NCBI RefSeq assembly: GCF_001553645.1
Contig: NZ_CP014231.1
Coordinates: 868,001 to 932,000 of the forward strand
DNA: 64,000 nucleotides
Source: Leptotrichia sp. oral taxon 847
GTDB lineage: Bacteria > Fusobacteriota > Fusobacteriia > Fusobacteriales > Leptotrichiaceae
Direction: 5' to 3'
The notes beneath the pieces are model-generated. The model was given only the letters and a program-made list of their open reading frames with translations. It had not been told where the DNA came from and did not search any database. The translations under genes were made by a program, and so were the position numbers. Shown one piece after another: positions 1 to 61,004 of this stretch (the first letter of the stretch is position 1; each line of letters begins with the position of its first letter).

Positions 1-2218
1 TTGTTTTTTTCATTTTTTAAAAGCGATATTTTTCTTACTTTTTTATTTTTTTTTAAAGAACTTTCTTTTTGAATCTTGTTATAAATTTCAATATATTTTT
101 TTATTCCTTTGCTATTTTTTATATAATTTTCCCTACTTCTCTTGTATTCTTCCAACTCCTTTTCATCAAATCTTTTGATATTAGCTTCCATCGTTTTTAT
201 TTCACTGTAAATTTTTTTTATATCTTTTTTCATATTTTTTAGTGCAACCTTGTAAGGAATGTAGTTATACGGATAATTTTTATACTTTTTTCGTTGTTTT
301 TCAGAAAGCTTTATATACTGCTTTTCCTTTTCGTAGCAACTTTCCGTGTAAATATATGGAATTTTTGTCAAATCACCGTACTCTTTTTCCTCAAAATAGA
401 CAATTTTATCGCTTTTTATTGGATTTCTTCCCGCAAGTTTAACTATTATTTTATCACTAGGAAATCGTCCGACTTCATCTGGCGTAAGCAAATCCTTTCC
501 CAGAAATTGCTGACTTTCAGATTTTATAATCGTTCCAATTGTTTTATTTGACTGAGTAAACTGCTCCACCGTTTCTTTTCCTAAAAGTTTTGAAACATAA
601 TTTGAAGTAGTTTCATCGTTTGAGGTGTAGAAAACTTGCGTCTGGCAATTTGACAAAAATCCATTTTCCTTCCCATAAATTTTAAATAATTGATCTAACG
701 ACTGAAGAATTATCATCATTTTCATACCGTATCCAGCGACATATCCAATTCCTTTTTCCAAAATTTCCAATTTTCCAATTGCTGGAAACTCGTCCAAAAG
801 CAAAAGCATTCTCCATTTGTGCCCCTTTTTATTGATGTAATCTATTTCTGGAGTAAGAATATTTACCATTTGCAGCAAAAGTATTTTTATTAGTGGTGAA
901 AGCGAAGTTATATCAGCGGGTGGAACAACCAAATAAAGTGATACTGGCTTTTTGTAATTCATCAAGTCAAAAATTCTAAAATCGCTGTGATCTGTATTAC
1001 TTTTTACAATCGGAATTTCAAAAATCGAAAGTTTAACTTTTGCCGAACCAATTACAGAACCTAAGGTCTGCTCTGGCAAATTTCCTTTTTCCATAAGGTA
1101 TCTAGCTGCTTTCGGATGTCTTCCTCCTTTAATTATTTCTGCATCGTTTGGATACATTTGAAATAATTTATTTCTGACATACTCTTTAACTTCTTCATCT
1201 TTTCCAAATTCTTCTATCATATCTTCCTCCTGCGCCTTTTGTAAAATTATTTCTTTTATTGGTGCCGTGTAATTTGGATCTGTTATAAAATCGACCACAT
1301 CTGCCATACTTGCACTAGACACTGGTTTTTTTTCGCCGTTTTCAAAAAGAAATTTTGGATTTTGTAAAAATTTTTTGTACATCACATAAAAAATTATCCC
1401 AATTAACAAATCCGCCGCTGAATTATTCCAATAAGGATCTTTTCCACCACCACTGTCATCCTGCATAATTATATCAACAATAAGTCTCACATCTTCCATT
1501 TCATATTCAGTCAAAAATCTGACTTCTGCAAGTGGATTATATCCACACGAATTTTTTGATTTTGGTGCAAATCTCAAGATTAAATTATCAAATTTTTCTT
1601 TTCTAGCCCCCGAAGTCAACTGATAATTTTCTCCTTTAATATCGAGCACAACAACACTTTCATTCCAAGAATCAATAAGCGTTGGAATTATAATGGAAAC
1701 TCCTTTCCCTGTTCGAGTTGGCGCCGTAACACAAATGTGAGTCTTGTTATTATCCCGTAATGTTATGCCGTTAAATCTCCCCAAAACTACACCTTTATCC
1801 GATTTTAGACTCACACCAAAGTATTTATCTTTTCCTTTTTTAAAGTCAATTTCTTCAATTCCTCCCCATTTTGCTGAACCATGTGAATCATTTATTCTTT
1901 TTTTCTTTTTCAAAATAAAATAAAAAATTAAAATTATTAAATTAAAAATTATAAGATAAAAAATTGCAAAAGCTCTTGTTTTTAAAAAAAATGAACTTTG
2001 AGAAATATCAATTATTTTCCCGTGATAACTTACTTTTTTCCCGACAAGTGCAAAACTTCCTAAAAAATTAATATTTGTTTGCATAGACAACATCTTATAA
2101 ATATGCAAAAAATTTTTTTTTAATATCAAATCAAAAAAGAAAATATATGCTAAAATATTTATAAAAAAATATGTAAAAAAATTACTATAACTTTTAAGTT
2201 AATCTTATTTTTCCTCAT
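1..2218 (-). CDS. virD4: VirD4/TraG-type T4SS coupling ATPase (3' end off window; apparent N-terminal frameshift)
   Basis: Coupling protein that would bring DNA or protein substrates to the secretion channel at the inner membrane. Translating the minus strand gives a TM segment (AFAIFYLIIFNLI...), Walker A (APTRTGKG) and Walker B (MLLLLDEFPAIG). Conserved TraG/VirD4 stretches such as HGSAKWG near the start also appear, so the family is clear. The best start is ATG at 2218: it directly abuts the upstream gene's TAA and has an AAGGGGAA ribosome site. That frame stops after 19 codons. One extra T in either 7-base tract (2163-2169 or 2175-2181 on the plus strand) would join it to the long frame and create a first TM helix, giving the usual two-TM VirD4 N-terminus. 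Without it, translation would have to begin at internal ATGs near 2093 or 2084, losing TM1. The C-terminus lies beyond position 1. Confidence 0.88.
2163..2181 (-). other. Apparent frameshift tracts in virD4 5' end
   Basis: Two 7-base A tracts on the plus strand (2163-2169 and 2175-2181) lie between the well-placed ATG at 2218 and the long virD4 frame. The ATG frame ends at a stop just after the second tract. Adding one base in either tract restores a continuous frame. This may be an assembly error, a true mutation, or a slippage-prone contingency tract. Confidence 0.6.
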
Positions 2219-3352
2219 TTATTCCCCTTTCATATATTCCAAAAATATTTCTTCAACCATTGTAAAAAAAGAATCTATATTACGAAAATCATAAATTTTT
2301 ATTCCAGTATTCATAATCAAAAATTTAATAAATAAATTTTTTTCGCATTTAAAATGATTTCTTTTCAAAAATTCATAAAAAATCTTTTTCACATCACTTT
2401 TTAAAAAAATATTTTCACTTCCAATAAAAAATTTTCCACTAAATTTTTCAGTTAATTGAAAAAAAACTTCTTTTTTTAAATTTTCAATTCCAATTCCATT
2501 TTGAATAGCTGATTTGAAAATAATATTTTTTTCGTTTCCTAAAATTTTAGTAAAAATCATACTGTATAAAATATCACTGTCCAAATAAAAAATCAAAAGT
2601 AAATTATTTTTCAAAAGTTCTTCATCTTTTTCTTTAGATGGAAAAGATAAAAAATCAGGAATTTCAATATCGTAATAATTCAAAATATTTTTTTCTTCGT
2701 AAAAACTCTCAATTTGAAATTTTATAGAAAGAAAATAAAACCTTTCTTTAAAATTTATTTTAAAATCCAAAATTCTAAAATTTGTTATATTTCCCCAAAA
2801 AAATTCACAATTTTGTGAAAAATCATAACCTTGATACAACGAATTATTAAAAGTAAAATCAGAAGTTTCATTTCCATTCATTTCCTCAAAAATTTTATCA
2901 ATTTCAAATTCATAAGCTTCCAATTCTGTAAAAAATCTTTTTGCAATTTTTTTTAATTTTAAATTTTTTCTTATTTCCAAAATTAACTCTTTCAAAATAA
3001 TATTAAAATTTTCATTTTCAAAATAATCAAAATCCCAATTATCCATCTCCTCTTTTTGAAGATTCAGAATTTCAAATAATTCAATTTCAAATTTTTCCCA
3101 CAAAACATATTTTACAAGCTCCCAGCTTTTTTTAAAAATAATTTTATGAACATAATTTTTACTGCAAAATTTTTCACAACTTGCAAACTTTTGTAATTTT
3201 CCATTTTTAATTCCATCTTTTATCCCAATAAAAAGAGTATATTTCTCAGAATTAACTTCATATTTGTATAAAAATCCAAAAGAAAATTTCTCAGAATTTT
3301 TTGTTTCACAGCTATTTATCAAATTTATTAAATTTTTTATTATATTTTCCAA
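2219..3352 (-). CDS. Unknown T4SS-operon protein, 377 aa
   Basis: I do not recognise this protein. It is 377 residues, extremely rich in Phe, Lys, Glu and Asn, with no signal peptide or membrane helix, so a cytoplasmic protein is likely. It lies between the virB8-like gene (9 bases away) and virD4 (stop TAA directly followed by the virD4 ATG), so it is co-transcribed and probably translationally coupled with core T4SS genes. A role as an assembly factor, or as an adaptor for the coupling protein, is inference from position only. The start ATG is at 3352, preceded by an AGGAGAAAATTTTGG-like ribosome site. Confidence 0.75.
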   Translation of the reverse strand: MENIIKNLINLINSCETKNSEKFSFGFLYKYEVNSEKYTLFIGIKDGIKNGKLQKFASCEKFCSKNYVHKIIFKKSWELVKYVLWEKFEIELFEILNLQKEEMDNWDFDYFENENFNIILKELILEIRKNLKLKKIAKRFFTELEAYEFEIDKIFEEMNGNETSDFTFNNSLYQGYDFSQNCEFFWGNITNFRILDFKINFKERFYFLSIKFQIESFYEEKNILNYYDIEIPDFLSFPSKEKDEELLKNNLLLIFYLDSDILYSMIFTKILGNEKNIIFKSAIQNGIGIENLKKEVFFQLTEKFSGKFFIGSENIFLKSDVKKIFYEFLKRNHFKCEKNLFIKFLIMNTGIKIYDFRNIDSFFTMVEEIFLEYMKGE

Positions 3353-3361
3353 AATTTTCTC

Positions 3362-4141
3362 CTACTGCGAATTTTGATTTTCCATCGGTTCCACTTCTAT
3401 ATTTTTAGTGTCTGAATTTTTGTTTAAATTAGAATATGTCCCATTATTCTGCTGAATTGGAATTGGATTTTGTAAAACATTTTGACTCACATTTCCAAAT
3501 TCTACATCTTTTATTATAAGTCCCAATGGATTTAATCTAACCATCGCATTTGAATTAACTGCAACTTTGTCTAAAAAAGCTACCATTGTATATTTAGCTT
3601 CTTTTTCAGGCGTCCCATTTTGTGAATAAGTCGTCTCCTTAAAGTTAACTTGGTATTTGTCCTTGTCAATTTTAACAAAGCTTTCAATCTCAACTGAAAT
3701 TGATTTTTGCATTCTTAAAACTTCATTTGTATTAGTTTTATTGGCGATAAAATCCTCGATTTTAGCTTTTGCAGAATTATTTACAAATGCCATTTTTTCT
3801 TTTGTCTGTTCTTTATAAAACTCGCTGTCCTTGTAAACAGTTCTTATTTTTTTCACAAAATCAACCAAAAAATATTCAATCAATTTTTCATCAACGTTTT
3901 GATTACTAGCGTTCTTAGTATTTAAAACCTGTCCATTGACGGAGTTTTCTTTATCAACTCTTATAACATAAGGAATATACGGATTTTTTACACTTCTATA
4001 AATTAATCCAAGGAGTGTCATAAAGTTTGTTAAAGTTAAGCACACTATTATAAAATATAATATTTTTAAATATTTTTGAATTTTGACAGTTGAATGATAC
4101 ATCATTTCAACTGATGTTCTCATACCTTTGGAGCTACTCAA
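3362..4141 (-). CDS. VirB8/TrbF-like inner-membrane T4SS protein
   Basis: Bitopic inner-membrane assembly factor. A short cytoplasmic N-terminus is followed by a single TM helix (about residues 25-47, YLKILYFIIVCLTLTNFMTLL). A periplasmic domain of about 170 residues then has the VirB8/TrbF pattern (NPYIPYVIRVD after the helix; the family fold is NTF2-like). Position between virB11 and virD4 fits. The coordinates use a TTG at 4141, which lacks a good ribosome site. A better one (AGAGGGGAAAG) precedes a GTG at 4191, but that frame is one base off. An extra A in the 7-base tract at 4168-4174 would fuse the two and add about 17 residues. The C-terminus is Asn/Gln-rich. Confidence 0.72.
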   Translation of the reverse strand: MSSSKGMRTSVEMMYHSTVKIQKYLKILYFIIVCLTLTNFMTLLGLIYRSVKNPYIPYVIRVDKENSVNGQVLNTKNASNQNVDEKLIEYFLVDFVKKIRTVYKDSEFYKEQTKEKMAFVNNSAKAKIEDFIANKTNTNEVLRMQKSISVEIESFVKIDKDKYQVNFKETTYSQNGTPEKEAKYTMVAFLDKVAVNSNAMVRLNPLGLIIKDVEFGNVSQNVLQNPIPIQQNNGTYSNLNKNSDTKNIEVEPMENQNSQ

Positions 4142-4167
4142 ATTCCCAAACTCATATTTCTCACTAA

Positions 4168-4174
4168 TTTTTTT
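4168..4174 (-). other. Possible frameshift tract at virB8-like start
   Basis: Seven T residues on the plus strand lie between a GTG with strong ribosome site (GTG at 4189-4191) and the main virB8-like frame. One additional base would place the GTG in frame. This mirrors the situation at the start of virD4. Confidence 0.45.
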
Positions 4175-4216
4175 ATTTCTTTTATATTCACAACTTTCCC
4201 CTCTAAAATTAAAATT

Positions 4217-5326
4217 TTAATCAATCAAGTTTTCCAAAATATATTTTTTATTTTTGTAGTCATAACCTTTTACTCTCATTATTTCACTCACATAATTACT
4301 GCTGTCCATTTTTTTCTTCACAGTAATTACAATATTTACAGCTTGCACTATTTCTTCAATCTGCGGAACAGAAGTTATTGAGAGCATATATTGTTCCATT
4401 TTTTTTAACGCAGATTGACTGTCATCTGCATGAATTGTATTAAATCCTCCTTTTGAACCAGAATTCCAAATTTTTAGTAAAATATCAACCTCTTCCCCAG
4501 TTCTTGACTCTCCAACAATTACGGTATCTCCATCAAGCCGCATAGAAGTTTTTAATAAATCAGAAAGTTTTACATATTTTGAAGTTGTAAGCTCTACCTT
4601 GTTGTCGCAGTCGCATATAATTTCGGGTGTATCTTCAATTATAATTATCCGTTTTTTTGTCCCTTTCAATTCATTGATGCAAGCATTTGCAAGAGTAGTT
4701 TTTCCAGTTCCAACTCCTCCAGCGATTAAAATATTTGCTCCATTATGTATCTCTTCTACAAGCTTTTTTTTATATGTTTCCGAAAGTTTTCCAGTATTTA
4801 CATAATCAGTCAGCGGAAAAATTCTAGACGGCCTTTTTCGCAGTGAAAAAACAGGTTGACCTTTTACAATATCGCCTATTAAACATTCTATTCTCTCGCC
4901 AGTTGGAAGATTTGTCGATAAAATTGGTGCTTCTTCAGAAATTATGGCGTGATTGTAATCGGCAATTAACTTTATCATATTTTCTGCTTTATCCGCTTCC
5001 AAAATTATATCTGTTTTAAATTTCCCCTTTCCAAACATATCGACTCTTATGAACCCATCTTGATTCAAATTAATTTCATTGATATTTTTATCTCTTAAAA
5101 GCGTCATAATATCTTTTCCAAACTGTGAAAATATGACTTCGCTGTCTTCGCGAACTTTGATAATCTGCTTGTATCTATATGGTAATTTTGAAAAAATCGA
5201 ATCATAAGTTGTAATATAACTTAAATCTTCAAGTCCAATATCGTCTGGACTTTTTTCCAAAACTTCCATTTTAGTTTTTTTATTTTTTTCCTCAATTTCT
5301 TCAATAGAAATTTTTATTGCTTCCAT
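4217..5326 (-). CDS. virB11: VirB11-family T4SS ATPase
   Basis: Hexameric traffic ATPase of the T2SS/T4SS secretion family that would power pilus assembly and substrate transfer from the cytoplasmic face. Visible motifs, in order: an N-terminal domain with NEINLNQDGFIRVD, Walker A (GGVGTGKTT), Asp box (IIIIEDTPEI), Walker B (DTVIVGESRTGEE) and His box (GGFNTIHADD). The length of 369 aa is normal. I start at the ATG at 5326 because AAAGGGGGAGAA sits just upstream. The GTG at 5344 six codons earlier lies in front of that ribosome site and overlaps the pilin stop codon. The operon runs pilin - ATPase - VirB8 - unknown - VirD4. Confidence 0.92.
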   Translation of the reverse strand: MEAIKISIEEIEEKNKKTKMEVLEKSPDDIGLEDLSYITTYDSIFSKLPYRYKQIIKVREDSEVIFSQFGKDIMTLLRDKNINEINLNQDGFIRVDMFGKGKFKTDIILEADKAENMIKLIADYNHAIISEEAPILSTNLPTGERIECLIGDIVKGQPVFSLRKRPSRIFPLTDYVNTGKLSETYKKKLVEEIHNGANILIAGGVGTGKTTLANACINELKGTKKRIIIIEDTPEIICDCDNKVELTTSKYVKLSDLLKTSMRLDGDTVIVGESRTGEEVDILLKIWNSGSKGGFNTIHADDSQSALKKMEQYMLSITSVPQIEEIVQAVNIVITVKKKMDSSNYVSEIMRVKGYDYKNKKYILENLID

Positions 5327-5340
5327 TTCTCCCCCTTTAA

Positions 5341-5682
5341 TCACAAAATTAAATTAAAATCAATATTTGCTCCAAAAATCCAAAAGATAAAATCACCAAT
5401 CGCCCAAGTCAATCCAATAATAAACGCCGCCTGAATAAATTTCATAAAAACAGTTGCCAAATCTGGTGGTTTTCCCGAAGAAAAAATTTCTGGAAAAATT
5501 CCTAAAATTGCGACAATTAGCATAACTCCGGTTATTGTCCACTGTAAAAACTCAATAAATCCAAATAAAATTCCATTTACATCTTTTGTAACTTCCGAAG
5601 CACCTTTATCTATTTCACCTGCAAAAGCTGGAAATATTAACAATATAAACATTATGATTACAAATATTTTTCTACTTTTCAT
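5341..5682 (-). CDS. VirB2/TrbC-like pilin
   Basis: Small protein of 113 aa with a cleavable signal peptide (MKSRKIFVIIMFILLIFPAFAG) followed by two hydrophobic helices, about residues 45-70 and 78-105. This is the layout of VirB2/TrbC major pilins. It is the first gene of the operon that continues into virB11 and has a good ribosome site (CAGGAGAAAAAT). In RP4 the TrbC pilin is cut and cyclised by TraF, and a TraF-like peptidase is encoded at 14382-14909. A cyclic pilin here is therefore possible but inferred. Confidence 0.75.
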   Translation of the reverse strand: MKSRKIFVIIMFILLIFPAFAGEIDKGASEVTKDVNGILFGFIEFLQWTITGVMLIVAILGIFPEIFSSGKPPDLATVFMKFIQAAFIIGLTWAIGDFIFWIFGANIDFNLIL

Positions 5683-5712
5683 ATTTTTCTCCTGATTATT
5701 AATCTTTTTTTA

Positions 5713-5741
5713 ATTATAACTTTATAATCTTTTTTTGTCAA
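5713..5741 (-). promoter_or_regulatory. Sigma70-type promoter of the virB2-virB11-virB8-virD4 operon
   Basis: Read on the minus strand there is TTGACA (5736-5741), a 17-base spacer and TATAAT (5713-5718). This is a perfect consensus match 31 bases upstream of the pilin start codon. Confidence 0.8.
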
Positions 5742-5789
5742 GAAAAAATTAAATAAAAATTAAATTAATTTAGAACAAAAAAATTAATC

Positions 5790-5818
5790 TTGACTTTTCA
5801 TAAAAATAATATTAAAAT
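5790..5818 (+). promoter_or_regulatory. Sigma70-type promoter of the NlpC/P60 gene
   Basis: TTGACT at 5790-5795, a 17-base spacer and TAAAAT at 5813-5818, upstream of the ATG at 5848 with its AAAAAGGGGGAG ribosome site. It is divergent from the T4SS promoter at 5713-5741, with about 50 bases between the two -35 boxes. Shared control is possible. Confidence 0.7.
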
Positions 5819-5847
5819 TAATTAAAATAAAAAAAAGGGGGAGAACA

Positions 5848-6462
5848 ATGAAAAAAACAATTTTTATTTTTTTTATAACAACTAGTCTATCTTTTACAAA
5901 TGGTCTGCGATTTACAATGGAGAAAGATAAAGATAACAATTTGAATAAAAAAAATTCTCGATCTGAAAAAGAAATTTCTGAAATTGGAGATGCTGATATA
6001 AAGTCATTTGAAACAAATATAAATACAGATGTAAAATTAATTGACAAGAAAAAAAATAATAAAATTTTACTAAACAATTTGCTCAATAAAATAATAAAAG
6101 AATCAAATACTTATTTAGGAACCCCGTATTTGTGGGGTGGAACTACAAAAAATGGAATTGATTGCTCAGCTTTTGTTAAAAATGTCTATTTATCAGTAGG
6201 AATAAAACTTCCCAGAGTTTCACGAAACCAAGCAAAAGTTGGAAAAACTGTGCCGTTAGATACAATAAGAAAAGGTGATTTAATTTTTTTTGAAACAGAC
6301 AAAAACCGTCCAAATACAGTTTCACACGTTGGAATTTATTTAGGAAATGGCAAATTAATTCATGCTTCCAGTAAAAACAAAAAAGTTGTCATAGTTCCGC
6401 TTAATCAAGGATATTTTTTATCAAAAATGGTTACAATAAAAAGGATTATAGATGTCTTATAA
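5848..6462 (+). CDS. Secreted NlpC/P60 peptidoglycan hydrolase (likely VirB1 analogue)
   Basis: Signal peptide (MKKTIFIFFITTSLSFTNG), a linker of about 60 residues rich in Asn, Lys and Asp, then an NlpC/P60 (C40) domain from about residue 88. Visible are GTPYLWGGTTKNGIDCSAFV with the catalytic Cys, PRVSRNQ, GDLIFF, and the His in SHVGIYLG. Such enzymes cut peptide cross-links in the cell wall. T4SS loci often carry a wall-opening enzyme (VirB1 lytic transglycosylase, or NlpC/P60 proteins in many Gram-positive systems). Its position divergent from the pilin operon suggests that role here, which is inference. The next gene overlaps its stop by 11 bases. Confidence 0.88.
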   Translation: MKKTIFIFFITTSLSFTNGLRFTMEKDKDNNLNKKNSRSEKEISEIGDADIKSFETNINTDVKLIDKKKNNKILLNNLLNKIIKESNTYLGTPYLWGGTTKNGIDCSAFVKNVYLSVGIKLPRVSRNQAKVGKTVPLDTIRKGDLIFFETDKNRPNTVSHVGIYLGNGKLIHASSKNKKVVIVPLNQGYFLSKMVTIKRIIDVL

Positions 6463-7153
6463 AAATAAAATGGACAAAATATTTGAATATTTAAAAGACA
6501 ATTTTTTTGAAGACGAAGTAATTGATGACTTTGACAATTTAAATTTAAATTATAATTTTGAATCAGAAAAATATTTGAATAAAAATTTTATTTTTCAAAA
6601 TATAAATAGAATGTTTTTACAAAGTAAATTTTCTGAAATAAAAAATTTTGAAAAAAAATTTAATTTTTTGGCAGACGATAATGTAAAAAAAATTTTTAAA
6701 GATAAATTTAGAAACGAATCGGTTAATGATTTTAATGATTTAAAAAAACTTTTTTCTAAAAAGAAAAATATTTCAAAAATATCTTTAAACTCTATCGTTA
6801 ATTTGATAAGCAAAACCAAACTTTACGATTTTTTCGAATTAAATATTTTGGAAAACGAAAATTTTAAAAATTTTAAAGAATATAGAAATGAAAAAAGTAT
6901 ACTAGAAAATGAATATTCCTTTTTTATTTTAAATTTAAAAAATAATTCTTCCAATTTAAAATTTTTACTGAAAGAAAAACAAAAAAATATAAATTTATTA
7001 AATATAAAAAATCAAGAAATTTTGGATGAGAATTTTAAAAATCTTTCAAATAATTTTATTAAATTAAATTTTCTTCGTAAAATAAAAAAAAGTAAAGTTG
7101 ATATCGAAAATATGAAAATAATCAGTCAGTTTCCAAAATATTTAAATAAGTAA
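6452..7153 (+). CDS. Unknown protein coupled to the NlpC/P60 gene, 233 aa
   Basis: Not recognised. The 233-residue product is highly charged and Asn/Lys/Phe-rich, without signal peptide or TM helix, and is predicted largely helical with coiled-coil-like stretches (for example around residues 90-120 and 165-200). It starts inside the end of the NlpC/P60 gene, so translational coupling is likely, and a terminator hairpin follows at 7165-7203. Being paired with the wall hydrolase and divergent from the pilin operon, it may serve the T4SS, but nothing in the sequence proves this. Confidence 0.65.
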   Translation: MSYKNKMDKIFEYLKDNFFEDEVIDDFDNLNLNYNFESEKYLNKNFIFQNINRMFLQSKFSEIKNFEKKFNFLADDNVKKIFKDKFRNESVNDFNDLKKLFSKKKNISKISLNSIVNLISKTKLYDFFELNILENENFKNFKEYRNEKSILENEYSFFILNLKNNSSNLKFLLKEKQKNINLLNIKNQEILDENFKNLSNNFIKLNFLRKIKKSKVDIENMKIISQFPKYLNK

Positions 7154-7164
7154 CTGCATAAAAA

Positions 7165-7203
7165 AAATAACTCTAATAATTTTATTTTGAGTTATTTTTC
7201 TTT
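7165..7203 (+). terminator. Rho-independent terminator after 6452-7153
   Basis: AAATAACTC (7165-7173) pairs with GAGTTATTT starting at 7189, followed by a T-rich stretch. It lies 12 bases after the stop codon. Confidence 0.7.
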
Positions 7204-7515
7204 AATTCTGAACCTCCCACTTCTCGCGTCGCAGGATTCTAAAATCTTTAAAAGTATTTAAAAATTTTCTAAGAAGTTTGATAGCTTTAACACTATCCTT
7301 ATTCTTTTAGGCGTGTTCAGCTCGCCCCTATTGTATAGGACAACATTTAAGTCCACAACTTTACTTTTCTTTAGAATATTTAATACTCCATTACAATCTT
7401 CAATCAAAGATATTATATCATATATTCTACATTTTATCTACTAAAATTTTTCCATATGCTTACTAAATTTTTGTGCAATTCATCTCACAACTAAAGTTGC
7501 GAGTGTTCTTGCACT
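7204..7515 (-). mobile_element. Relic of an IS200/IS605-type element (tnpB 3' end plus end hairpin)
   Basis: The gap 7154-7598 carries no intact gene. On the minus strand, 7440 to 7258 reads as a fragment ending VVDLNVVLYNRGELNTPKRI...KLSNFLENF and a stop, which resembles the C-terminal end of TnpB proteins. It is followed by a GC-richer tail (CGCGAGAAGTGGGAGGTTCAG, to about 7205) like the right end/omega-RNA region of such elements. At 7473-7513 a nested hairpin (outer GTGCAA/TTGCAC, inner CTCACAAC/GTTGCGAG) resembles an IS200/IS605 end structure. Most of the transposase is missing. The TnpB assignment is from memory of the family, so moderate. Confidence 0.5.
7473..7513. repeat. Nested inverted repeat, probable IS200/IS605 end hairpin
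   Basis: Outer arms are GTGCAA (7473-7478) and TTGCAC (7508-7513). Inner arms are CTCACAAC (7484-7491) and GTTGCGAG (7496-7503, one mismatch) around a 4-base loop. The ATTCATCTC motif before the inner stem is typical of imperfect hairpins at the ends of single-strand transposing IS200/IS605 elements. Confidence 0.55.
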
Positions 7516-7598
7516 ATTTCATAAAAGTAAAAAAATTCTGTCATTTTTTAAATTCAAATTTCTTATTTTTTTCTAAAATTTTTATTCTTTTATCAAAA

Positions 7599-8921
7599 TT
7601 ATTTATACACTGATTTATAAACTCTTTTAACCTTATTAAATGGTGTTTCGATTTCTCTAAAAACTTCTGTTCCTTTTACTAAAAACATTTTTCCATAATA
7701 AATTGATTTTCCAATTTCTTTTATTTTTATCAAAAGTAATACTACGATATAAAGTGTCAATATCAGTTCAAATAATTTTGACATATTACTAATTCCACTT
7801 TTTTCAATTTTGTCAGTTAGTGAAAAACTGACTCCAGCTAGTAAAAACATTACAATAACATTTGTCATTGCATAAATTACTGCTCCAACTACTCCAATTC
7901 CAATATTTTTTGTGATTTTCAAAACTAAAAATATAATGATACACATCGAAAAACAGCCAATTATTAAATAATCAATTAAAATTGACATTATTTCAACAGC
8001 TGCCTTAAAAATAAGATATAAAAATAAAATTCCAGAAAATAATAAAATTAACGGCATTATATTGTTGACAACTCCTTGAATGTTAAACATCATTTTTATT
8101 CCTTGCAACATAATCGAAAATGGAATATCAAATAATTTGATTAAATATTCTGAAAATTTTTTCATATCAAAATTTTGTCCAGCTAATATACCACCGACTT
8201 TCATTGAAAAATCAAACAACACTCCTGTATAAAAATTCCAAAAAAAACTATTTGCCAAAAGTGAAAAAACAATTCCCGTAACTATAATTTGTGGAATGAT
8301 ATTTTTTAATATTTCAATTATTGTTTTTGAATGTTTCGTTTCAACATTTAAAATACTTTTAAAAATCCTAATTAAAACTTCTACAGTTCCCATAAACAAA
8401 AGAAAAACGGCTAAAATATTTGAAAGCGTTCTCCCAACATTGTCAGTAATATTTCCTACTACTTTAAACAAATTTGTCACCATTTTACTCCGAATATCTT
8501 TTGTCTCTTCCATTTTTCCAATTGGAGATTTTTCATAATTTGGATTATTTACATAACCATTATTTCCACTATCATTTTTCAATTCTCTCATTTCATTTGC
8601 CATAAATGTTGCCGCAGCTATAATTTCCCAATATTTTAATTCTGTTTTATCCCACAATATTGGACTTGTTTCTGTATCATTTTTAAAATTTAAGCTTGAT
8701 GACTTTATTGCATTCGTAGCTAATCCTATATTATATGCTGAAATGCCTGTCGCAGCAGTTGATAAAATCGTCCCAAAATTAAAGACAGCATTTTCATCAA
8801 AATTTTGATTTTGGCTTTGAAAATCATTTTTTTCAACATTTTGATTTTTTTCCAAAGCATTTGCAACTGTAGAAAAAATTCCAATAATTAAAATTAAAAA
8901 TATTATTTTTTTTATTCTCAT
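7599..8921 (-). CDS. VirB6/TrbL-like polytopic T4SS membrane protein (copy 3)
   Basis: A 440-residue protein with signal peptide (MRIKKIIFLILIIGIFSTVANA), a soluble N-terminal part of about 140 residues, then six or seven TM helices between about residues 150 and 410 and a basic C-terminal tail. This is the pattern of VirB6/TrbL channel proteins of the inner membrane. It is the last gene of the minus-strand operon that begins with the TraF-like peptidase at 14909, and the third polytopic protein in a row. The ribosome site is not strong (AAGAAAGAAAAATG). The exact family is inferred from topology and neighbourhood rather than from conserved motifs. Confidence 0.65.
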   Translation of the reverse strand: MRIKKIIFLILIIGIFSTVANALEKNQNVEKNDFQSQNQNFDENAVFNFGTILSTAATGISAYNIGLATNAIKSSSLNFKNDTETSPILWDKTELKYWEIIAAATFMANEMRELKNDSGNNGYVNNPNYEKSPIGKMEETKDIRSKMVTNLFKVVGNITDNVGRTLSNILAVFLLFMGTVEVLIRIFKSILNVETKHSKTIIEILKNIIPQIIVTGIVFSLLANSFFWNFYTGVLFDFSMKVGGILAGQNFDMKKFSEYLIKLFDIPFSIMLQGIKMMFNIQGVVNNIMPLILLFSGILFLYLIFKAAVEIMSILIDYLIIGCFSMCIIIFLVLKITKNIGIGVVGAVIYAMTNVIVMFLLAGVSFSLTDKIEKSGISNMSKLFELILTLYIVVLLLIKIKEIGKSIYYGKMFLVKGTEVFREIETPFNKVKRVYKSVYK

Positions 8922-8944
8922 TTTTCTTTCTTAATCCTCTTTTT

Positions 8945-10066
8945 CTAAATTTTTTTATCTAAGTTTTTTTCAAATGAATTATTTATATTTTTTCCCTTTT
9001 TCTCTAAATTTTTATCTTGTCTTTCATCTTTTTCATCTATATTTTTCCTTTTAAATTTTAAATTTTCTTCTTTTTCTTGTCCAATTCCCATTCCATCCAA
9101 AATTAAATTTACAACACCACTCACATTCCACATAATTTTTTGCAAAACAAAAATAATAACTGCAAAAGCAACAATTCCATCAATACTGTTAGAAATTGAT
9201 ATAACATTTAAAATTTGATAGATAATTCCCATTATTGCGACTGAAATAAATAGTGTAACCGCTTGTTTTATGATAAGCCTCACACCTTCAAAGCCAATCT
9301 TTTTTGTTGAATCCAAAGTTAAAAAAATTAAATATATTGTTGATACCAAAGAAAGTATTAATGCGGTAAAAATATTTCCCACAAATTTTGATAAAATCCT
9401 AATCACTATCCACATACAAAAAATTAATATTATTATTTTAATAACCATTTCAAATATCCCCGACAAAGTCATTCTTTGCAATACATTTTTTAAAATAGCA
9501 AATGGTTTTGCCAAAAATATTTGCGAAATTTTCCCTGGTGTGGTATTTAAAAAACTAGTATCTCCAAAAAATAAAATTCCAAATTTGTAGAACATCAGAA
9601 AAATGCTTTCTACAAAATATGTCAAAAAAGTTCCAGAAAACATTTTGTTACCATAAAACTGATTTTTTCCAAAGCCAAATTTTAGGGAGTAATGAACTGG
9701 TGTAACAAATATAAACGAAACAAAAAGATTTGTTGTAAAAGTTGGTATTATTATTTTAAATATTCCATAAATATCAATTTGTCCCAAATTTTTTAAAATT
9801 ATTTGCAAAACATTTATAATCATAAAAAAAAGTATAGTATATCCGAAAATTTGACTTATTTTAAATGAAATTCCACGATGTAAAACAATTCCTCCAAAAT
9901 AAATTGAATCAATAAAATTTGAAATTATGTGATCACCTTTTAATGTGTATTCCTTGAATACTTTTCTAAAAGTATCAGATTCAAAATTTGCATACAATGT
10001 TGAATTCACTAAAAACATTGATGCCGTAATAAAATTATTTTTAAAAAACTTTTTTACTCTCATCAT
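8945..10066 (-). CDS. VirB6/TrbL-like polytopic T4SS membrane protein (copy 2)
   Basis: A 373-residue membrane protein with an N-terminal signal-like helix and about six further hydrophobic segments, including FGYTILFFMIINVLQIIL, MVIKIIILIFCMWIVI and IFTALILSLVSTIYLIFL. The tail (about residues 325-373) is hydrophilic and very Lys/Glu-rich. Topology and position between two similar proteins support a VirB6/TrbL-type inner-membrane channel role. The start has AAAAGGGGAAATGATG, so either of two adjacent ATG codons could be used. It lies 8 bases after the upstream gene. Confidence 0.6.
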   Translation of the reverse strand: MMRVKKFFKNNFITASMFLVNSTLYANFESDTFRKVFKEYTLKGDHIISNFIDSIYFGGIVLHRGISFKISQIFGYTILFFMIINVLQIILKNLGQIDIYGIFKIIIPTFTTNLFVSFIFVTPVHYSLKFGFGKNQFYGNKMFSGTFLTYFVESIFLMFYKFGILFFGDTSFLNTTPGKISQIFLAKPFAILKNVLQRMTLSGIFEMVIKIIILIFCMWIVIRILSKFVGNIFTALILSLVSTIYLIFLTLDSTKKIGFEGVRLIIKQAVTLFISVAIMGIIYQILNVISISNSIDGIVAFAVIIFVLQKIMWNVSGVVNLILDGMGIGQEKEENLKFKRKNIDEKDERQDKNLEKKGKNINNSFEKNLDKKI

Positions 10067-10074
10067 TTCCCCTT

Positions 10075-11160
10075 TTAAAAACTATCTGACAAACTTTGTG
10101 CTATTCCCGAAACAATACTTTGCAAAAAACTTATACATAAAAATATTTTTACCATACTTATTAAATTGAAAGGTGTAATAATCACTCCATTTTTTATTAC
10201 AGCTCCTCCCAGATTTTGAATTGCCATCGAGAGCAAAATTACAACTGCAAAATTTATAAGATATTGCAAAAATCCACTTATTATTATTTCCAAAGTATTA
10301 AGTGCTTTATCTCTTGTAATATTGTGCATTCCAAAAATCATATAAAATAATCCGATAGAAGTTGAAATAATAAATGAAAGTGTACTAAAAAACATATTTA
10401 AGACTATTTTTAAAAGCGTTAAAACGGTCATAAGTCCCATACCGACTGTAAGCGGTCTGAAAAACACAGTTTGCACTATTACTCTTGAAATAGAAAATAA
10501 CATTCCTAATGTATTTAACGCATTTTTTGCAACTTCGGAAGGACTTGTAAACCACTGTGAAATCGTTTTCCAAATTGTTTTAAAAAATCCAAATAATCCT
10601 CCAATTGCATGAGGTTGACCTAAAATTCCATTCCCATAACTTGCCACAATCAAAGGAATTCCTTTTTTAAAAACGTGAGCGGCTAAATCTGAATAAGTTA
10701 AATATTTTCCATTTTTCATAAAAATATTACTAGCTTTTATAAAATCGCTGTAAATATAAGTCGGCAATTTATACAAAAAAACTGGCACAATGATTTTTTT
10801 CATAATCGCTGGATACATTGCAACAAACGCAAAATACGGTGATTTCAAACTAATTTCAACCAAAATATTTTTAACAATCTCTTCAATCGAACCACTAAAT
10901 CCATTTTTTAAAATTTTCCACAAAATATTTATGATAAGTAAAAAAATCATAATAGACATAATTATTCTTGAAAGTTCAACTTCGCCATTATTTAAAATTG
11001 TAAAAAAATCTGCTTCGCCAGATGAAATTTTATTTTTAATCAAATCCAAGCCAACTTTTCCTAAACCATTTTCATTTGAAATTTCAACTCCAATTTTCTT
11101 AATCAAAATATATTTTAAAATTACTTCAATATAATAAAAAAAATTTATAGCACAAAACAA
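10075..11160 (-). CDS. VirB6/TrbL-like polytopic T4SS membrane protein (copy 1, TTG start)
   Basis: A 361-residue protein with roughly six TM helices. One segment (IIMSIMIFLLIINILWKIL) follows a periplasmic N-terminal part, and several lie between residues 225 and 355, including VVILLSMAIQNLGG and MVKIFLCISFL. The best start is a TTG at 11160, because AAGGAGGGG sits at ideal spacing in front of it and no in-frame ATG is near. It belongs to the same operon as 8945-10066 and 7599-8921. Three consecutive VirB6-like genes is unusual; many T4SS have one, though some bacteria (for example Rickettsiales) carry several. Confidence 0.6.
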   Translation of the reverse strand: MFCAINFFYYIEVILKYILIKKIGVEISNENGLGKVGLDLIKNKISSGEADFFTILNNGEVELSRIIMSIMIFLLIINILWKILKNGFSGSIEEIVKNILVEISLKSPYFAFVAMYPAIMKKIIVPVFLYKLPTYIYSDFIKASNIFMKNGKYLTYSDLAAHVFKKGIPLIVASYGNGILGQPHAIGGLFGFFKTIWKTISQWFTSPSEVAKNALNTLGMLFSISRVIVQTVFFRPLTVGMGLMTVLTLLKIVLNMFFSTLSFIISTSIGLFYMIFGMHNITRDKALNTLEIIISGFLQYLINFAVVILLSMAIQNLGGAVIKNGVIITPFNLISMVKIFLCISFLQSIVSGIAQSLSDSF

Positions 11161-11195
11161 TTATTTCCCCTCCTTCTTAAAAAAGTTTTCTATTT

Positions 11196-11702
11196 CTATT
11201 CCTCGCTCATTTCTTTTGATTTTTTATGAATAACCTTTAACGTTTTTGTTTCCAAGTCCTTTAAATTTTTAATTTTTTCTTCAGCTTCAAATTGATTCTT
11301 TGGCATATTTTTTAAAAATTCTTTTCTAAAATTTTCAATTTCTGCATCAGAAATATTTAAATTTTGTTCTTTAAATATTTTTTTTATTTCTTCATTTGGA
11401 ATATTTGCAAATTTTTGAATATTTTTTTCATAAGAATCTTCTTTTTCTTCAGGTTCCTCCACAAATAATTCTGATCTTGTTAAATTTTTTTCTTCTTCTT
11501 TTGAAACAACTTTCTTATACTGCGCATTTCTTTTTTCACCAAAAATTGGAGTTTTAGAAAAATTTAGATTAACTAGCAAAATTACAAAATAAATAATTAA
11601 AGCCAAACCTCCCATAAAAATATATTTTTTAGGAATGGCATTTCCCCTTATCACAACTTTATCTTCCATCGACAAAATAAAATCAATAATTTTTTTCTTC
11701 AT
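11196..11702 (-). CDS. Unknown single-TM T4SS-operon protein, 168 aa
   Basis: The N-terminus is cytoplasmic (about 27 residues), followed by one TM helix (YIFMGGLALIIYFVILLV) and a Glu/Lys-rich helical tail probably in the periplasm. This arrangement recalls the N-terminal part of VirB10/TrbI, but the protein is far too short and has no beta-barrel domain, so I do not call it VirB10. It lies in the operon between an unknown membrane-anchored protein and the VirB6-like genes. The ribosome site is GGGGGAAAAATATG. Confidence 0.6.
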   Translation of the reverse strand: MKKKIIDFILSMEDKVVIRGNAIPKKYIFMGGLALIIYFVILLVNLNFSKTPIFGEKRNAQYKKVVSKEEEKNLTRSELFVEEPEEKEDSYEKNIQKFANIPNEEIKKIFKEQNLNISDAEIENFRKEFLKNMPKNQFEAEEKIKNLKDLETKTLKVIHKKSKEMSEE

Positions 11703-12213
11703 ATTTTTCCCCCAATTTCTTAAATTTCAAATACAGCATTTTTTCAAAAAATGTTTTAAAATCACTTTTCTCAATTTCGACTATTTCAAATTCTGCCATT
11801 TCATAAATCAAGCTCTTTAACTCTGTTTCTGGCAAAAAATTAATTGGAATCTTATTCAAAACTGAAATTGGATTTCTTAAAAGAATAATAGCTTTTTTTT
11901 GAAAATCGAAAAATTTAGATGAATTTATTTCTTTTATTATAAAATCTTGATCTTTTAGAGCTACATCAAAATATTCTTTTATTTCGCCAATATTGTTTTT
12001 TCCCCGAATATATTTTATTTCATAAGTTTTCTCCCGCTCAATCAAATGAAAAAGTTTCTTTTTTATTTTTATAAAAATTTTATTTTCTTCACTTAATGAA
12101 ACATCTAAATAATTTCGCACAATAATTTTTTTCCCATAATTTCCAAATCCCATTTTTTTTATAATAAATAAAACTAAAATCAAAAAAATTAATGTCATCA
12201 AATTAAATAACAT
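11683..12213 (-). CDS. Unknown membrane-anchored T4SS-operon protein, 176 aa
   Basis: I start at the ATG at 12213 because AAAAGGTGGGAG stands right before it. The longer open frame upstream (to 12330) would overlap the end of the previous gene and lacks a ribosome site. The product has an N-terminal TM helix (MLFNLMTLIFLILVLFII) and a soluble, basic domain of about 150 residues without recognisable motifs. It overlaps the start of the next gene (11196-11702) by 20 bases, suggesting translational coupling. Function unknown. Confidence 0.65.
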   Translation of the reverse strand: MLFNLMTLIFLILVLFIIKKMGFGNYGKKIIVRNYLDVSLSEENKIFIKIKKKLFHLIEREKTYEIKYIRGKNNIGEIKEYFDVALKDQDFIIKEINSSKFFDFQKKAIILLRNPISVLNKIPINFLPETELKSLIYEMAEFEIVEIEKSDFKTFFEKMLYLKFKKLGEKYEEKNY

Positions 12214-12229
12214 AATCTCCCACCTTTTT

Positions 12230-14335
12230 CTAAAAAATATTTTTAATTTTTTTTGTAAGTGAACAACTTTCTTCACCCTCCAAATAAAAATTTTCAGTTT
12301 TAAAATATTGTTTGTCCAAATAAATATCAAATTTAGAACTTTTTAACCTAAAATTTTTTATTTCAACTTTTTTCCCAAAAGATTTTTTTTCTCCGTATAA
12401 AATAATTTTTTCAAATCCATTCATCAGTTTTAGAAATTCAAAAAAATTTTTAAAAAGTGAGCTTTGCACAAAAATTTCATTTCTTGAATTAATGTTAAAA
12501 AAAATATATTTTATATTTTCATCTAAAATTCTGTGATACTTAAAAAGATTGAAAAATTTATCTATATTATCTTCATTTAACTCAAACGGATTCTTTTTAT
12601 CAATTTTAAAATTTTTTTTATATTTATATTCCAGATATTCTTCGTACAAAACTTCTTTTTTCTCAATTTTTTTCTCATTATTCAAAAAAATTATTTCCCT
12701 TTTAAAATTTTGCCCCCTAAAAAATTTATATTCATCTTGTAAAATATCAAAATCTGAAATTCTAAAAACTACCCCATCTAAAAATAAATTAACACAACTA
12801 ATTTCATCAAAAAAAGCGACTGTCACTAATCTTTCAAAATTTTTATTTCCAAATTTTTGTGAAAACGGAACAACAAAATTAAATTTTTTCAAAAGTAAAA
12901 AATACACTTTAATAAAGATAAATTCTTTGTCAAAATGATAATTTTTATCCTTTAAATTTTTATTTTTATATTCTTCAATAACGCTATAGATATCATTCAA
13001 AAAAATTCCCACAACTTTTTGATTTTTTACTTTTTTTGGCTTTTTCAAATTTTTTATTTTAAAATTAAAAGAAAAATCTTTATTCTTTTTTTCCAACTCA
13101 AACTTTTTTTCTTCACACAACTTTTTGATTTTTTCTTCATTTTCTAAATTTTTTTCCAAAATATCTTTAAACTCAATCTCAATTTGCTTCTTTTGAAAAT
13201 TCATTATTTTTTTAATCAAATTAATGTCATTAAGTTTTACATTCTTTTTTTCAATTATTCCATTTTCATTAGGAACTCCTACAATATATTTTCTAAGTTC
13301 ATCAATCAAATCTTTAAAAACAACACTTTTTGCAATTTCAAAAAAATTAATTTTTTTCATATTTATGTTATAAAATTCAATATTTACTAAATAAAATTTA
13401 ACCCCATTTTTCACAACTAAATTTTTTTTTATAATTTCTTCAAACTTTTCAAATATCAATTTTTTCAATATTTTTTCCTTTGGGAAATTTTTTTTATAAA
13501 AAATTTCTTTTTTATTTTTTAATAAATTTTCAGGAATCAAAATCGACTTTTTTCTTACATCAAAGAATATCCTAGCTTTATAAAATTTTTTTGCTAGTTT
13601 ATAAAAATCTCTATCTTTTTTATTTTTTTCAAAATTAAAATTTAACTTCAAATTTTTTAGAATCGAAATTCCTACTAAAAACTTCTCTTTTTTTAAAATT
13701 TCTTTTCCATTTTCAAAATAAATCTTTTCATATTCAAAATTTTCTTTTATAAAATTATAAATCTTCATAAAAATATAAATTTCATTAATTTTATTTTTTT
13801 TAATTTTATTTCTTAAATTTTCTTTTTCCTCAAAACTCCTTTTTATTTCCTCGTCCACCTCTTCCAGATATTCAAATTCTTCATACCTTTTTTTATAAAT
13901 CCAAAATAATTTTTTTAAAATTTTTTCCGAGGTTTTTAAATAATTTTCTTCCAATTTCTCATCTACAACTTCCATTTTCAAATTTTCATATCCAAAATAA
14001 TTAAAAAAATCCAAAACACTCAATTTATAATCCACGTTTTTATTATCTTTTTTATTTTTTAAAAAACCATCTCTATCTTTTATTGTCGCTTCATAAATTA
14101 TTTTTTTTCTTTTCTGAATTTTTGAAATCTGCTCTACAAAAAATTGATTAATTCCATTTTGCTTTTCAAAATCATTCGTCCCATAAATAATTTTAGGATT
14201 AAAAACTAAATTTTCTTTTTCGAATGAATCTTTTTTTATTTCACAATTTAAAATATTTTTTACATCACTAAAATAAATACTCACATTCCAAAGTTTTTCA
14301 ATATTTTTAAAACTCAATTTATAATTTTCTTTCAT
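12230..14335 (-). CDS. Unknown 701-aa T4SS-operon protein
   Basis: Not recognised. The 701 residues are extremely rich in Lys, Phe, Asn, Glu and Ile, with no signal peptide or TM helix, so probably cytoplasmic. Long charged helices occur around residues 130-200 and 395-425. There is no Walker motif and no HUH relaxase signature that I can see. It is the second gene of the operon after the TraF-like peptidase, with a good ribosome site (AAAGGGGGAAAAATG). As the largest unassigned protein of the locus it is a candidate for a divergent relaxase, DNA-processing or scaffold component. That is speculation from size and position. Confidence 0.7.
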   Translation of the reverse strand: MKENYKLSFKNIEKLWNVSIYFSDVKNILNCEIKKDSFEKENLVFNPKIIYGTNDFEKQNGINQFFVEQISKIQKRKKIIYEATIKDRDGFLKNKKDNKNVDYKLSVLDFFNYFGYENLKMEVVDEKLEENYLKTSEKILKKLFWIYKKRYEEFEYLEEVDEEIKRSFEEKENLRNKIKKNKINEIYIFMKIYNFIKENFEYEKIYFENGKEILKKEKFLVGISILKNLKLNFNFEKNKKDRDFYKLAKKFYKARIFFDVRKKSILIPENLLKNKKEIFYKKNFPKEKILKKLIFEKFEEIIKKNLVVKNGVKFYLVNIEFYNINMKKINFFEIAKSVVFKDLIDELRKYIVGVPNENGIIEKKNVKLNDINLIKKIMNFQKKQIEIEFKDILEKNLENEEKIKKLCEEKKFELEKKNKDFSFNFKIKNLKKPKKVKNQKVVGIFLNDIYSVIEEYKNKNLKDKNYHFDKEFIFIKVYFLLLKKFNFVVPFSQKFGNKNFERLVTVAFFDEISCVNLFLDGVVFRISDFDILQDEYKFFRGQNFKREIIFLNNEKKIEKKEVLYEEYLEYKYKKNFKIDKKNPFELNEDNIDKFFNLFKYHRILDENIKYIFFNINSRNEIFVQSSLFKNFFEFLKLMNGFEKIILYGEKKSFGKKVEIKNFRLKSSKFDIYLDKQYFKTENFYLEGEESCSLTKKIKNIF

Positions 14336-14381
14336 TTTTCCCCCTTTCCCCTCAAAAACTTTAAAATTTTCTATTTTAATT

Positions 14382-14909
14382 TCAAAAATATTTTATTATC
14401 TTTTCCAAATTTTTCTCATCAATCAAAAATTTCATCTCAAATTTAAGATCCTTTTTTTTAAGAATTCCAAAATATCTTGAGTCAAACGAAGTAGGTGTAT
14501 CTCCCATAACAAAAAATTCATCTTTTTTTAAGACATAACTTTCTCCTTTCATATTTTCATTTAGTCCTTTTATTTTAAAAATTTTCCCCTTTTTTATCCC
14601 ATTTATAAGAATTTCCCCACTCCTTTTGATTTCTATTTTATCCCCATAAACTCCTGCAATTCTTTTCATTAAATAAATTTTTCTCATTTTATTTTTATTT
14701 GGAAAATTTTCTAAATACTTCAAATATTTTTTATTTAGTTCAAACAAGACTAAATTATTTTTTTCATACTTTGGAAAAATTTTTTTAAAATAAAACCCTT
14801 TTGGCAAACTATTTGTAACATTATAAGTAAACCTAGTGAAAATAAAAATTATAAGAAAAAAAATAAATACAAAAACTGAAAAAAAATATTTCTTAAAAAT
14901 TTTCTTCAT
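14382..14909 (-). CDS. traF: TraF-type conjugal-transfer S26 signal peptidase
   Basis: A 175-residue serine peptidase of the S26 family, TraF branch. The N-terminal TM helix is followed by NSLPKGFY with the likely catalytic Ser34. LMKRIAGVYGD gives the general-base Lys82, and MGDTPTSFDSRYFG is the C-terminal box of the S26C/TraF group. In RP4, TraF matures and cyclises the TrbC pilin. Here it is the first gene of the second T4SS operon and probably acts in the periplasm on the pilin encoded at 5341-5682. The start has AAAAAGGAGTTAAAATTAAAATG. Confidence 0.85.
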   Translation of the reverse strand: MKKIFKKYFFSVFVFIFFLIIFIFTRFTYNVTNSLPKGFYFKKIFPKYEKNNLVLFELNKKYLKYLENFPNKNKMRKIYLMKRIAGVYGDKIEIKRSGEILINGIKKGKIFKIKGLNENMKGESYVLKKDEFFVMGDTPTSFDSRYFGILKKKDLKFEMKFLIDEKNLEKIIKYF

Positions 14910-60754: not shown

Positions 60755-60830
60755 TGGTGCCCAGACGCGGAATCGAACCACGGACACAGGGATTTTCAGT
60801 CCCTTGCTCTACCGACTGAGCTATCTGGGC
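60755..60830 (-). tRNA. tRNA-Phe(GAA)
   Basis: Full cloverleaf on the minus strand. Acceptor GCCCAGA/TCTGGGC, anticodon loop CTGAAAA with GAA, GTTCGATTC T-arm, and the CCA end encoded. Last gene of an eight-tRNA operon. Confidence 0.95.
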
Positions 60831-60834
60831 ATAA

Positions 60835-60920
60835 TGGCGGGTGAACTGGGATTCGAACCCAGACATCTTGCGATTTCGCCGGTTTTCAAGACCGGTCCCT
60901 TGCCGTTCGGACATCCACCC
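60835..60920 (-). tRNA. tRNA-Ser(TGA)
   Basis: Class II tRNA with a long variable arm. Acceptor GGGTGGA, anticodon loop CTTGAAA (TGA) between CCGGT/ACCGG stems, CCA encoded. Confidence 0.93.
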
Positions 60921-61004
60921 AAAACTTTAATTTAATTCAATAAAGTAAATATATTGTAGTTATTTTAAAAAAAATACCACATTTTAATATGGTTTCAAAA
61001 AAAA

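What the first reader, a model, noticed from the sequence alone, without database searches (positions are those of the whole stretch)
1..14909. Divergent T4SS with two operons, three VirB6-like proteins and several orphan proteins
Recognisable parts are VirD4, VirB11, VirB8-like, VirB2-like, TraF and an NlpC/P60 hydrolase. Five proteins (377, 701, 176, 168 and 233 aa) match nothing I know. Three consecutive polytopic VirB6/TrbL-like genes is unusual. The locus may represent a poorly described fusobacterial conjugation or effector-delivery system.
Basis: partly seen in the sequence, partly recalled or inferred. Interest (0 to 1): 0.72.

Follow-up and report, generated by a model that had tools for sequence, protein, structure and literature searches.

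The report
Relaxase-free type IV secretion locus
A Leptotrichia-type mouth bacterium carries, fixed at one chromosomal site, a complete but divergent DNA/protein injection machine with no DNA-nicking partner gene, which suggests that it now exports proteins, possibly cell-wall-cutting enzymes, instead of carrying out mating.

Summary
The locus runs about 27 kb (contig 855.97-882.91 kb). The missing virB3, virB4, virB9, virB10, a second virB2-like gene and two more virB6-like genes lie just left of the window. So there are three structural operons, interleaved with two opposite-strand peptidoglycan-hydrolase cassettes, up to five VirB6-like proteins, and nine orphan families, not five.

No relaxase lies in the locus. 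Two complete relatives (G074, G077) carry the same locus at the same site and have no MOBQ/MOBP/MOBF match genome-wide. Every component, orphans included, is under purifying selection. VirB4 orthologues (80-94%) occur in 5 of 98 Fusobacteriota genomes; the next is about 42% identical.

Best reading: an MPF_T/VirB-type T4SS exapted from conjugation for protein export. The best cargo candidate is a signal-peptide-less NlpC/P60-GH108 hydrolase. In two relatives a GH108 gene precedes a secreted LprI-type lysozyme inhibitor, resembling an effector-immunity pair.

Against this: no LprI sits in the window's own locus, its hydrolase/virB6e cassette is damaged (N-terminal frameshift, nonsense), and an apparatus role for the hydrolase is not excluded. 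New variant of a known kind.

The parts
1..2129 (-). VirD4 coupling ATPase (stop codon about 110 nt left of the window; 746 aa in all)
   Evidence: PF02534 E 1.2e-97; w=0.11-0.13 versus G074/G077
2219..3352 (-). Orphan 377 aa, soluble, between virB8 and virD4
   Evidence: No Pfam/NCBIfam match; orthologues in G074, G077 (1-nt A-run deletion), G085 (40%); w 0.38-0.45
3362..4141 (-). VirB8
   Evidence: PF04335 E 2.1e-27
4217..5344 (-). VirB11 ATPase
   Evidence: PF00437 E 1.4e-26; 80% identical in G085; w=0.08
5341..5682 (-). VirB2-like pilin a (113 aa)
   Evidence: PF04956 only E 0.043; profile link to the second VirB2-like protein outside the window, prob 91%, E 9.3e-7
5848..6462 (+). Secreted NlpC/P60 hydrolase, VirB1-like candidate
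   Evidence: PF00877 E 6.6e-32; N-terminal signal-like stretch by inspection; similar NlpC genes in the T4SS elements of G094, G087 and G088
6452..7153 (+). Orphan 233 aa, overlaps the NlpC gene; 1164 aa in G085
   Evidence: Start overlaps NlpC stop; profile match to the 1164-aa protein next to NlpC in G085, prob 94%, E 1.4e-7
7599..8921 (-). VirB6c (440 aa)
   Evidence: PF04610 TrbL E 2.8e-4, and 2.5e-5 for the G085 orthologue, both just below cut-off
8945..10066 (-). VirB6b (373 aa), 6 TM-like segments
   Evidence: Paralogue of VirB6d outside the window (45% over 292 aa; prob 100%) and weakly like VirB6c (E 5e-5)
10075..11160 (-). VirB6a-like polytopic protein (361 aa; 663 aa in G085)
   Evidence: 7 TM-like segments; weakly like VirB6e (E 1.3e-4); no TrbL match, so VirB6 assignment tentative
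11196..11702 (-). Orphan 168 aa, one TM-like segment then soluble domain
   Evidence: orthologues in all five carriers; w 0.36-0.39
11683..12213 (-). Orphan 176 aa, N-terminal TM-like segment
   Evidence: orthologues in all five carriers; w 0.23-0.28
12230..14335 (-). Orphan 701 aa, soluble, basic
   Evidence: No family; only in the 5 carriers among 98 Fusobacteriota; no plasmid match
14382..14909 (-). TraF-type S26 signal peptidase
   Evidence: PF10502 E 1.5e-16

Best explanation
This is the right half of a complete, chromosomally fixed VirB/VirD4-type (MPF_T) T4SS that descends from a conjugation machine and has become a relaxase-free protein exporter in one Leptotrichia clade and in a neighbouring genus. 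Shown: VirD4, VirB3, VirB4, VirB8, VirB9, VirB10, VirB11 homologues, two VirB2-like proteins and several VirB6-like proteins; no relaxase in the locus, and none of the MOBQ/P/F families anywhere in two complete carrier genomes; same site and gene order in three species; purifying selection on every part. Inferred: VirD4 recruits proteins, not a relaxase-DNA complex; the nine orphan families are lineage-specific apparatus, chaperone or substrate proteins; the secreted NlpC/P60 opens peptidoglycan for assembly (VirB1 role). The best cargo candidate is the NlpC/P60-GH108 double hydrolase, which has no signal peptide, carries a C-terminal tail ending in Arg that the solitary GH108 relatives compared lack, and is linked in two relatives to a secreted LprI lysozyme inhibitor. 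That would fit delivery of a wall-cutting enzyme into neighbouring bacteria, with LprI as immunity, but this last step is a hypothesis.
For: Complete set of T4SS components. Relaxase searches: PF03389, PF03432 and PF08751 give no match in G074 and G077 (single-contig, 99% complete); the only one in G000 lies at 2.17 Mb beside a second T4SS; G085 has two elsewhere. Same site between nrdD and ahpC in three species, with T4SS dS mostly 0.3-0.65 against 0.28-0.42 for nrdD/ffh of the flank, so vertical; w 0.01-0.49 for all genes including all orphans, repeated in the G085/G086 pair. VirB4 tree: the clade sits on a long stem (1.10) apart from the other Fusobacteriota T4SSs, several of them relaxase-bearing. 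The NlpC-GH108 fusion is found only in carriers of this T4SS among 98 genomes; no signal peptide and tails ending FTR/IVR/KVR, unlike the solitary GH108 proteins compared. LprI directly after a GH108 gene in G086 (65 nt), after a GH108 remnant next to the intact gene in G085, and a third LprI next to virB6e in G085.
Against: No substrate, translocation or activity is shown. No LprI in the window's own locus (nearest copies at 684 and 1003 kb), and LprI genes are common in Leptotrichia, so adjacency could partly be chance. In this genome the GH108 gene has a 7-nt deletion that puts its N-terminal extension out of frame and virB6e has a stop; G074 and G077 have lesions in other parts. In a related mobile element (G088) an NlpC-like domain is fused to a polytopic VirB6-like protein (by inspection), which favours an apparatus role for such hydrolases. 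MOBH, MOBC, MOBT and MOBB relaxases were not searched; the MOBV search had no positive control.
Confidence: 0.52

Rival explanations
1. Immobilised conjugative element: a former ICE that lost its relaxase and integrase and is slowly decaying in place.
For: Derived from conjugative relatives; each Leptotrichia carrier shows one or a few lesions; lower G+C than the rest of the window.
Against: Purifying selection on every gene, core VirB4 w=0.06-0.07 and VirB11 0.08; conserved in two genera (VirB4 80%) with the gene set kept even where split into two clusters; no relic of relaxase or integrase among the locus ORFs scanned.
Confidence: 0.22
2. The system still moves DNA in trans: it mobilises plasmids or the second element, whose relaxase docks on this VirD4.
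For: VirD4 is retained and constrained; the window's genome has a MobA/L relaxase at 2.17 Mb.
Against: That relaxase lies with its own VirD4 and VirB4; G074 and G077 have the locus but no MOBQ/P/F relaxase at all.
Confidence: 0.14
3. DNA release or uptake machine (as ComB or the gonococcal island), with hydrolases for envelope passage.
For: T4SSs with such roles are known (own knowledge; also stated in PMC4793230); two hydrolases in the locus.
Against: ComB-type uptake is known to need no VirD4 (own knowledge), whereas VirD4 is constrained here; no competence gene among the locus ORFs.
Confidence: 0.07
4. The NlpC-GH108 protein is not cargo but the machine's own muralytic enzyme (or a TtsA-like, endolysin-type export factor), so the only candidate effector disappears although protein export may remain. 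This rival concerns the cargo, not the class of machine.
For: GH108 half is mostly 47-61% identical to solitary endolysin-like proteins across Leptotrichiaceae; NlpC-like domain fused to a VirB6-like protein in G088; in Leptotrichia the gene sits directly before virB6e.
Against: A second, secreted NlpC is already present; an apparatus enzyme would be expected to have a signal peptide; GH108 diverges fast (58% between G085 and G086 against 97% for VirB4) and has an LprI neighbour.
Confidence: 0.35

Closest known systems
IncP/Trb-like MPF_T conjugation systems of Fusobacteriota (pILYOP02 of Ilyobacter polytropus; integrated elements of G094; second T4SS of this genome)
   Same: VirB3, B4 (TrbE-like), B8, B9, B10, B11, D4 and in several a TraF-type peptidase; VirB4 34-42% identical
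   Different: They have a MobA/L-type relaxase and several have integrase or topoisomerase genes; this locus has no relaxase, and has extra VirB6-like proteins, nine orphan families and a GH108 fusion
X-T4SS, the bacteria-killing T4SS of Xanthomonadales (PMC6536674)
   Same: Chromosomal, no relaxase in the locus, peptidoglycan hydrolases and secreted inhibitors as neighbours (the latter only in G085/G086)
   Different: No VirB7 with N0 domain, no XVIPCD, VirB5/VirB7 not recognised, different phylum, multiple VirB6-like proteins
Rickettsiales vir homolog (rvh) T4SS (PMC2653234)
   Same: Five VirB6-like proteins, vertical inheritance, scattered clusters (as in G085)
   Different: No duplicate VirB4, VirB8 or VirB9; signal peptidase and hydrolase cassettes present; host-associated but not intracellular lineage (inferred)
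pT4SS_T class of TXSScan (PMC4793230)
   Same: MPF_T components without a relaxase
   Different: The main text of that survey names no fusobacterial pT4SS; nine unassigned families here

Membership tests
VirB/VirD4 (MPF_T, class A) T4SS | VirB4 ATPase and VirD4 coupling protein | tested here: met
   VirB4: TIGR00929 2.6e-110, TrbE model 1.5e-165 (below their strict equivalog cut-offs); VirD4 PF02534 1.2e-97, above cut-off
VirB/VirD4 (MPF_T, class A) T4SS | VirB8, VirB9, VirB10, VirB3, VirB11 | tested here: met
   PF04335, PF03524, PF03743, PF05101, PF00437, all above cut-off
VirB/VirD4 (MPF_T, class A) T4SS | VirB2 pilin and VirB6 | tested here: inconclusive
   VirB2 E 0.043; TrbL 2.8e-4 and 2.5e-5, below cut-offs; internal profile links
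VirB/VirD4 (MPF_T, class A) T4SS | VirB5 and lipoprotein VirB7 | tested here: not met
   No match to the locus ORFs scanned; a secreted 124-aa protein before virB4 is an unproven candidate
Conjugative T4SS / ICE | Relaxase in or near the locus | tested here: not met
   Locus ORFs scanned with Pfam; genome searches PF03389, PF03432, PF08751
Conjugative T4SS / ICE | Integrase and attachment site | tested here: inconclusive
   No integrase among the scanned locus ORFs and no flanking tRNA on either side; att repeats not searched
X-T4SS | Chromosomal location | tested here: met
   Single 2.19-Mb contig, same site in three species
X-T4SS | VirB7 with N0 domain and all twelve subunits | tested here: not met
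   VirB5 and VirB7 not recognised
X-T4SS | Effectors with C-terminal XVIPCD | tested here: not met
   No such Pfam hit in the locus proteins scanned; whole genome not scanned
rvh T4SS | Duplicated VirB4, VirB8, VirB9 | tested here: not met
   Single copies in the locus
pT4SS (protein-secreting T4SS) | MPF_T machine without relaxase | tested here: met
   four minor MOB families not searched
pT4SS (protein-secreting T4SS) | Translocates a protein | not testable with these tools
   Needs an experiment

The most novel reading that the evidence does not exclude
A bacteria-killing T4SS outside the Proteobacteria: an oral Fusobacteriota machine with an enlarged VirB6 set and nine private protein families that injects an endolysin-derived NlpC-GH108 double hydrolase into competitors, with LprI proteins as immunity.
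Probability: 0.2. Interest if true: 0.8.

Novelty: new variant of a known kind. Interest (0 to 1): 0.5.

Why it matters
Protein-delivering T4SSs are known for two MPF types in the TXSScan survey (PMC4793230), and the bacteria-killing ones in the review read here are proteobacterial (PMC6536674). A vertically kept, relaxase-free T4SS in oral Leptotrichia relatives would be an independent case of conjugation machinery being re-used, would give a handle on contact competition in dental biofilm, and offers nine unassigned protein families tied to a defined machine.

Tried and rejected
NCBIfam and Pfam on the orphans: nothing. Profile comparison of the orphans with one another and with ORFs of five other Fusobacteriota T4SSs: no convincing match (one search timed out). 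Viral-contig scans with the 701-aa alignment and VirB8: nothing. Plasmid tblastn with the 701-aa protein: nothing. Empty-site test: in the other ten Leptotrichia species nrdD and ahpC are not adjacent, so no clean empty site could be shown. LprI immunity in the window's own locus: absent.
Full report
What was checked. The window is bases 868001-932000 of a single-contig genome of 2,194,935 bases. I read the genome to the left.

Anatomy of the whole locus, 855.97-882.91 kb, most genes on the minus strand. Operon 1 (right, in the window): traF, 701, 176, 168, virB6a, virB6b, virB6c. Operon 2: virB2a, virB11, virB8, 377, virD4, 124, virB4, virB2b; it crosses the window edge inside virD4. Operon 3 (left of the window): 136, 258, 93, 242, virB3, virB9, virB10, virB6d. 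Between operons 1 and 2, on the plus strand, lies a secreted NlpC/P60 gene overlapping the 233-aa orphan. Between operons 2 and 3, on the plus strand, lie the NlpC/P60-GH108 gene and virB6e. Operons are inferred from strand and spacing. Orphan families: 377, 701, 176, 168, 233 in the window and 136, 258, 93, 242 outside; the secreted 124-aa protein before virB4 is a tenth unassigned protein. VirB6b and VirB6d are clear paralogues (45% over 292 aa); VirB6c touches the TrbL model just below its cut-off; VirB6a and VirB6e resemble each other only weakly and are called VirB6-like by topology and position.

Distribution and evolution. Among 98 Fusobacteriota genomes the 701-aa orphan is in five, the same five that carry close VirB4 orthologues (93-94% in G074 and G077, 80% in G085 and G086); the next VirB4 is 42%. 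In G000, G074 and G077 the locus lies at the same place, between nrdD and ahpC, with the same gene order, and its synonymous divergence resembles that of nrdD and ffh in the flank. In G085 the same gene set is split between two chromosomal regions, contigs C2 and C6. Pairwise dN/dS is 0.01-0.49 for all locus genes, 0.04-0.17 for VirB4, VirB11 and VirD4; the G085/G086 pair gives 0.03-0.34. This is a simple pairwise estimate, but it speaks against a dead element. The VirB4 tree puts the clade on a long stem of 1.10 substitutions per site, apart from the other T4SSs of Fusobacteriota, several of which carry relaxases.

Relaxase. None of the locus ORFs scanned is a relaxase. Genome-wide, PF03389, PF03432 and PF08751 give nothing in the complete genomes G074 and G077. 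The window's genome has one MobA/L protein at 2.17 Mb, beside a second, complete T4SS (VirB4 35% identical). G085 has relaxases at C3 48.6 kb, some 13 kb from another T4SS, and at C6 57.9 kb, 32 kb beyond the locus. By the convention of PMC4793230 a T4SS without relaxase is filed as a candidate protein-secretion system (pT4SS). MOBH, MOBC, MOBT and MOBB were not searched, and the MOBV search had no positive control.

The hydrolases. The NlpC/P60 protein (204 aa) has a secretion-signal-like N-terminus and resembles NlpC genes in T4SS elements of the family, so a VirB1-like role is likely. The other hydrolase joins NlpC/P60 and GH108 with a peptidoglycan-binding domain. It has no signal peptide; its NlpC Cys and His and the GH108 Glu region are kept by inspection. 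The full fusion was found only in carriers of this T4SS. Its GH108 half is mostly 47-61% identical to solitary proteins spread over Leptotrichiaceae genomes, but the T4SS-linked versions have an extra C-terminal tail ending in Arg (FTR in three species, IVR in G085, KVR in G086), absent from the solitary ones compared. In G086 a secreted LprI-family protein starts 65 nt after the GH108 gene and is followed by virB2a; in G085 LprI lies between a decayed second GH108 copy, next to the intact one, and virB2a; another LprI lipoprotein follows virB6e in G085. An LprI-type protein has been proposed as immunity to a T6SS peptidoglycan hydrolase in Salmonella Dublin (PMC8867033), and X-T4SS effectors are mostly wall or membrane hydrolases with lipoprotein inhibitors (PMC6536674). 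This is why bacterial targets come first among the possible ones, but it is an analogy.

Caution. In the window's own genome the GH108 gene has a 7-nt deletion relative to G077 and G074 in the N-terminal extension; a downstream ATG would still give both enzyme domains (345 aa). virB6e has an in-frame stop. So the cassette I propose as cargo is damaged exactly here. G074 has a one-base deletion in an A-run of the 701 gene; G077 has one in the 377 gene and another near the end of the 701 gene, and its virB6d is cut short by unrelated sequence. Sequencing error, phase variation and early decay cannot be told apart. An NlpC-like domain fused to a VirB6-like membrane protein in an element of G088 (by inspection) argues that such hydrolases can be part of the machine.

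Verdict. Observation confirmed and extended. The interpretation 'poorly described fusobacterial conjugation or effector-delivery system' is narrowed to a relaxase-free, vertically inherited T4SS, probably a protein exporter (0.52). An antibacterial function is the most interesting open reading (0.2). It is a new variant of the VirB/VirD4 kind: it meets the core membership features, fails those of conjugative elements (relaxase) and of X-T4SS (VirB7 N0, XVIPCD), and resembles rvh in its number of VirB6-like proteins without sharing its other duplications.

Noticed in passing
L005 (G000:C1:2170000-2189000): A second T4SS of the same genome with a MobA/MobL relaxase, VirB8/9/10/D4/11/4, a VirB5-like protein and at least two polytopic genes, next to an IS256-type transposase: probably a conjugative element.
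   Followed up: partly
L003:15514-16347 (+): virB6e, intact 277 aa in G074, G077 and G085, is interrupted by an in-frame stop in the window's genome.
   Followed up: yes
L099:7329-8690 (+) (G088:C54): A signal-peptide-bearing NlpC/P60-like domain fused to a polytopic VirB6-like protein in a mobile element with topoisomerase: a domain fusion linking wall hydrolysis and the VirB6 channel.
   Followed up: no
L021:13936-17430 (-) (G085:C2): 1164-aa protein next to the NlpC gene, parts of which resemble the 233-aa orphan of the window; several locus proteins are much longer in this genus (258 to 766 aa, virB6a 361 to 663 aa).
   Followed up: partly
G000 and 12 congeners: LprI-family (PF07007) genes are numerous (1-10 per genome) in Leptotrichia, as are solitary GH108 endolysin-like genes.
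   Followed up: no
window 60755-61518: Cluster of eight tRNA genes on the minus strand.
   Followed up: no
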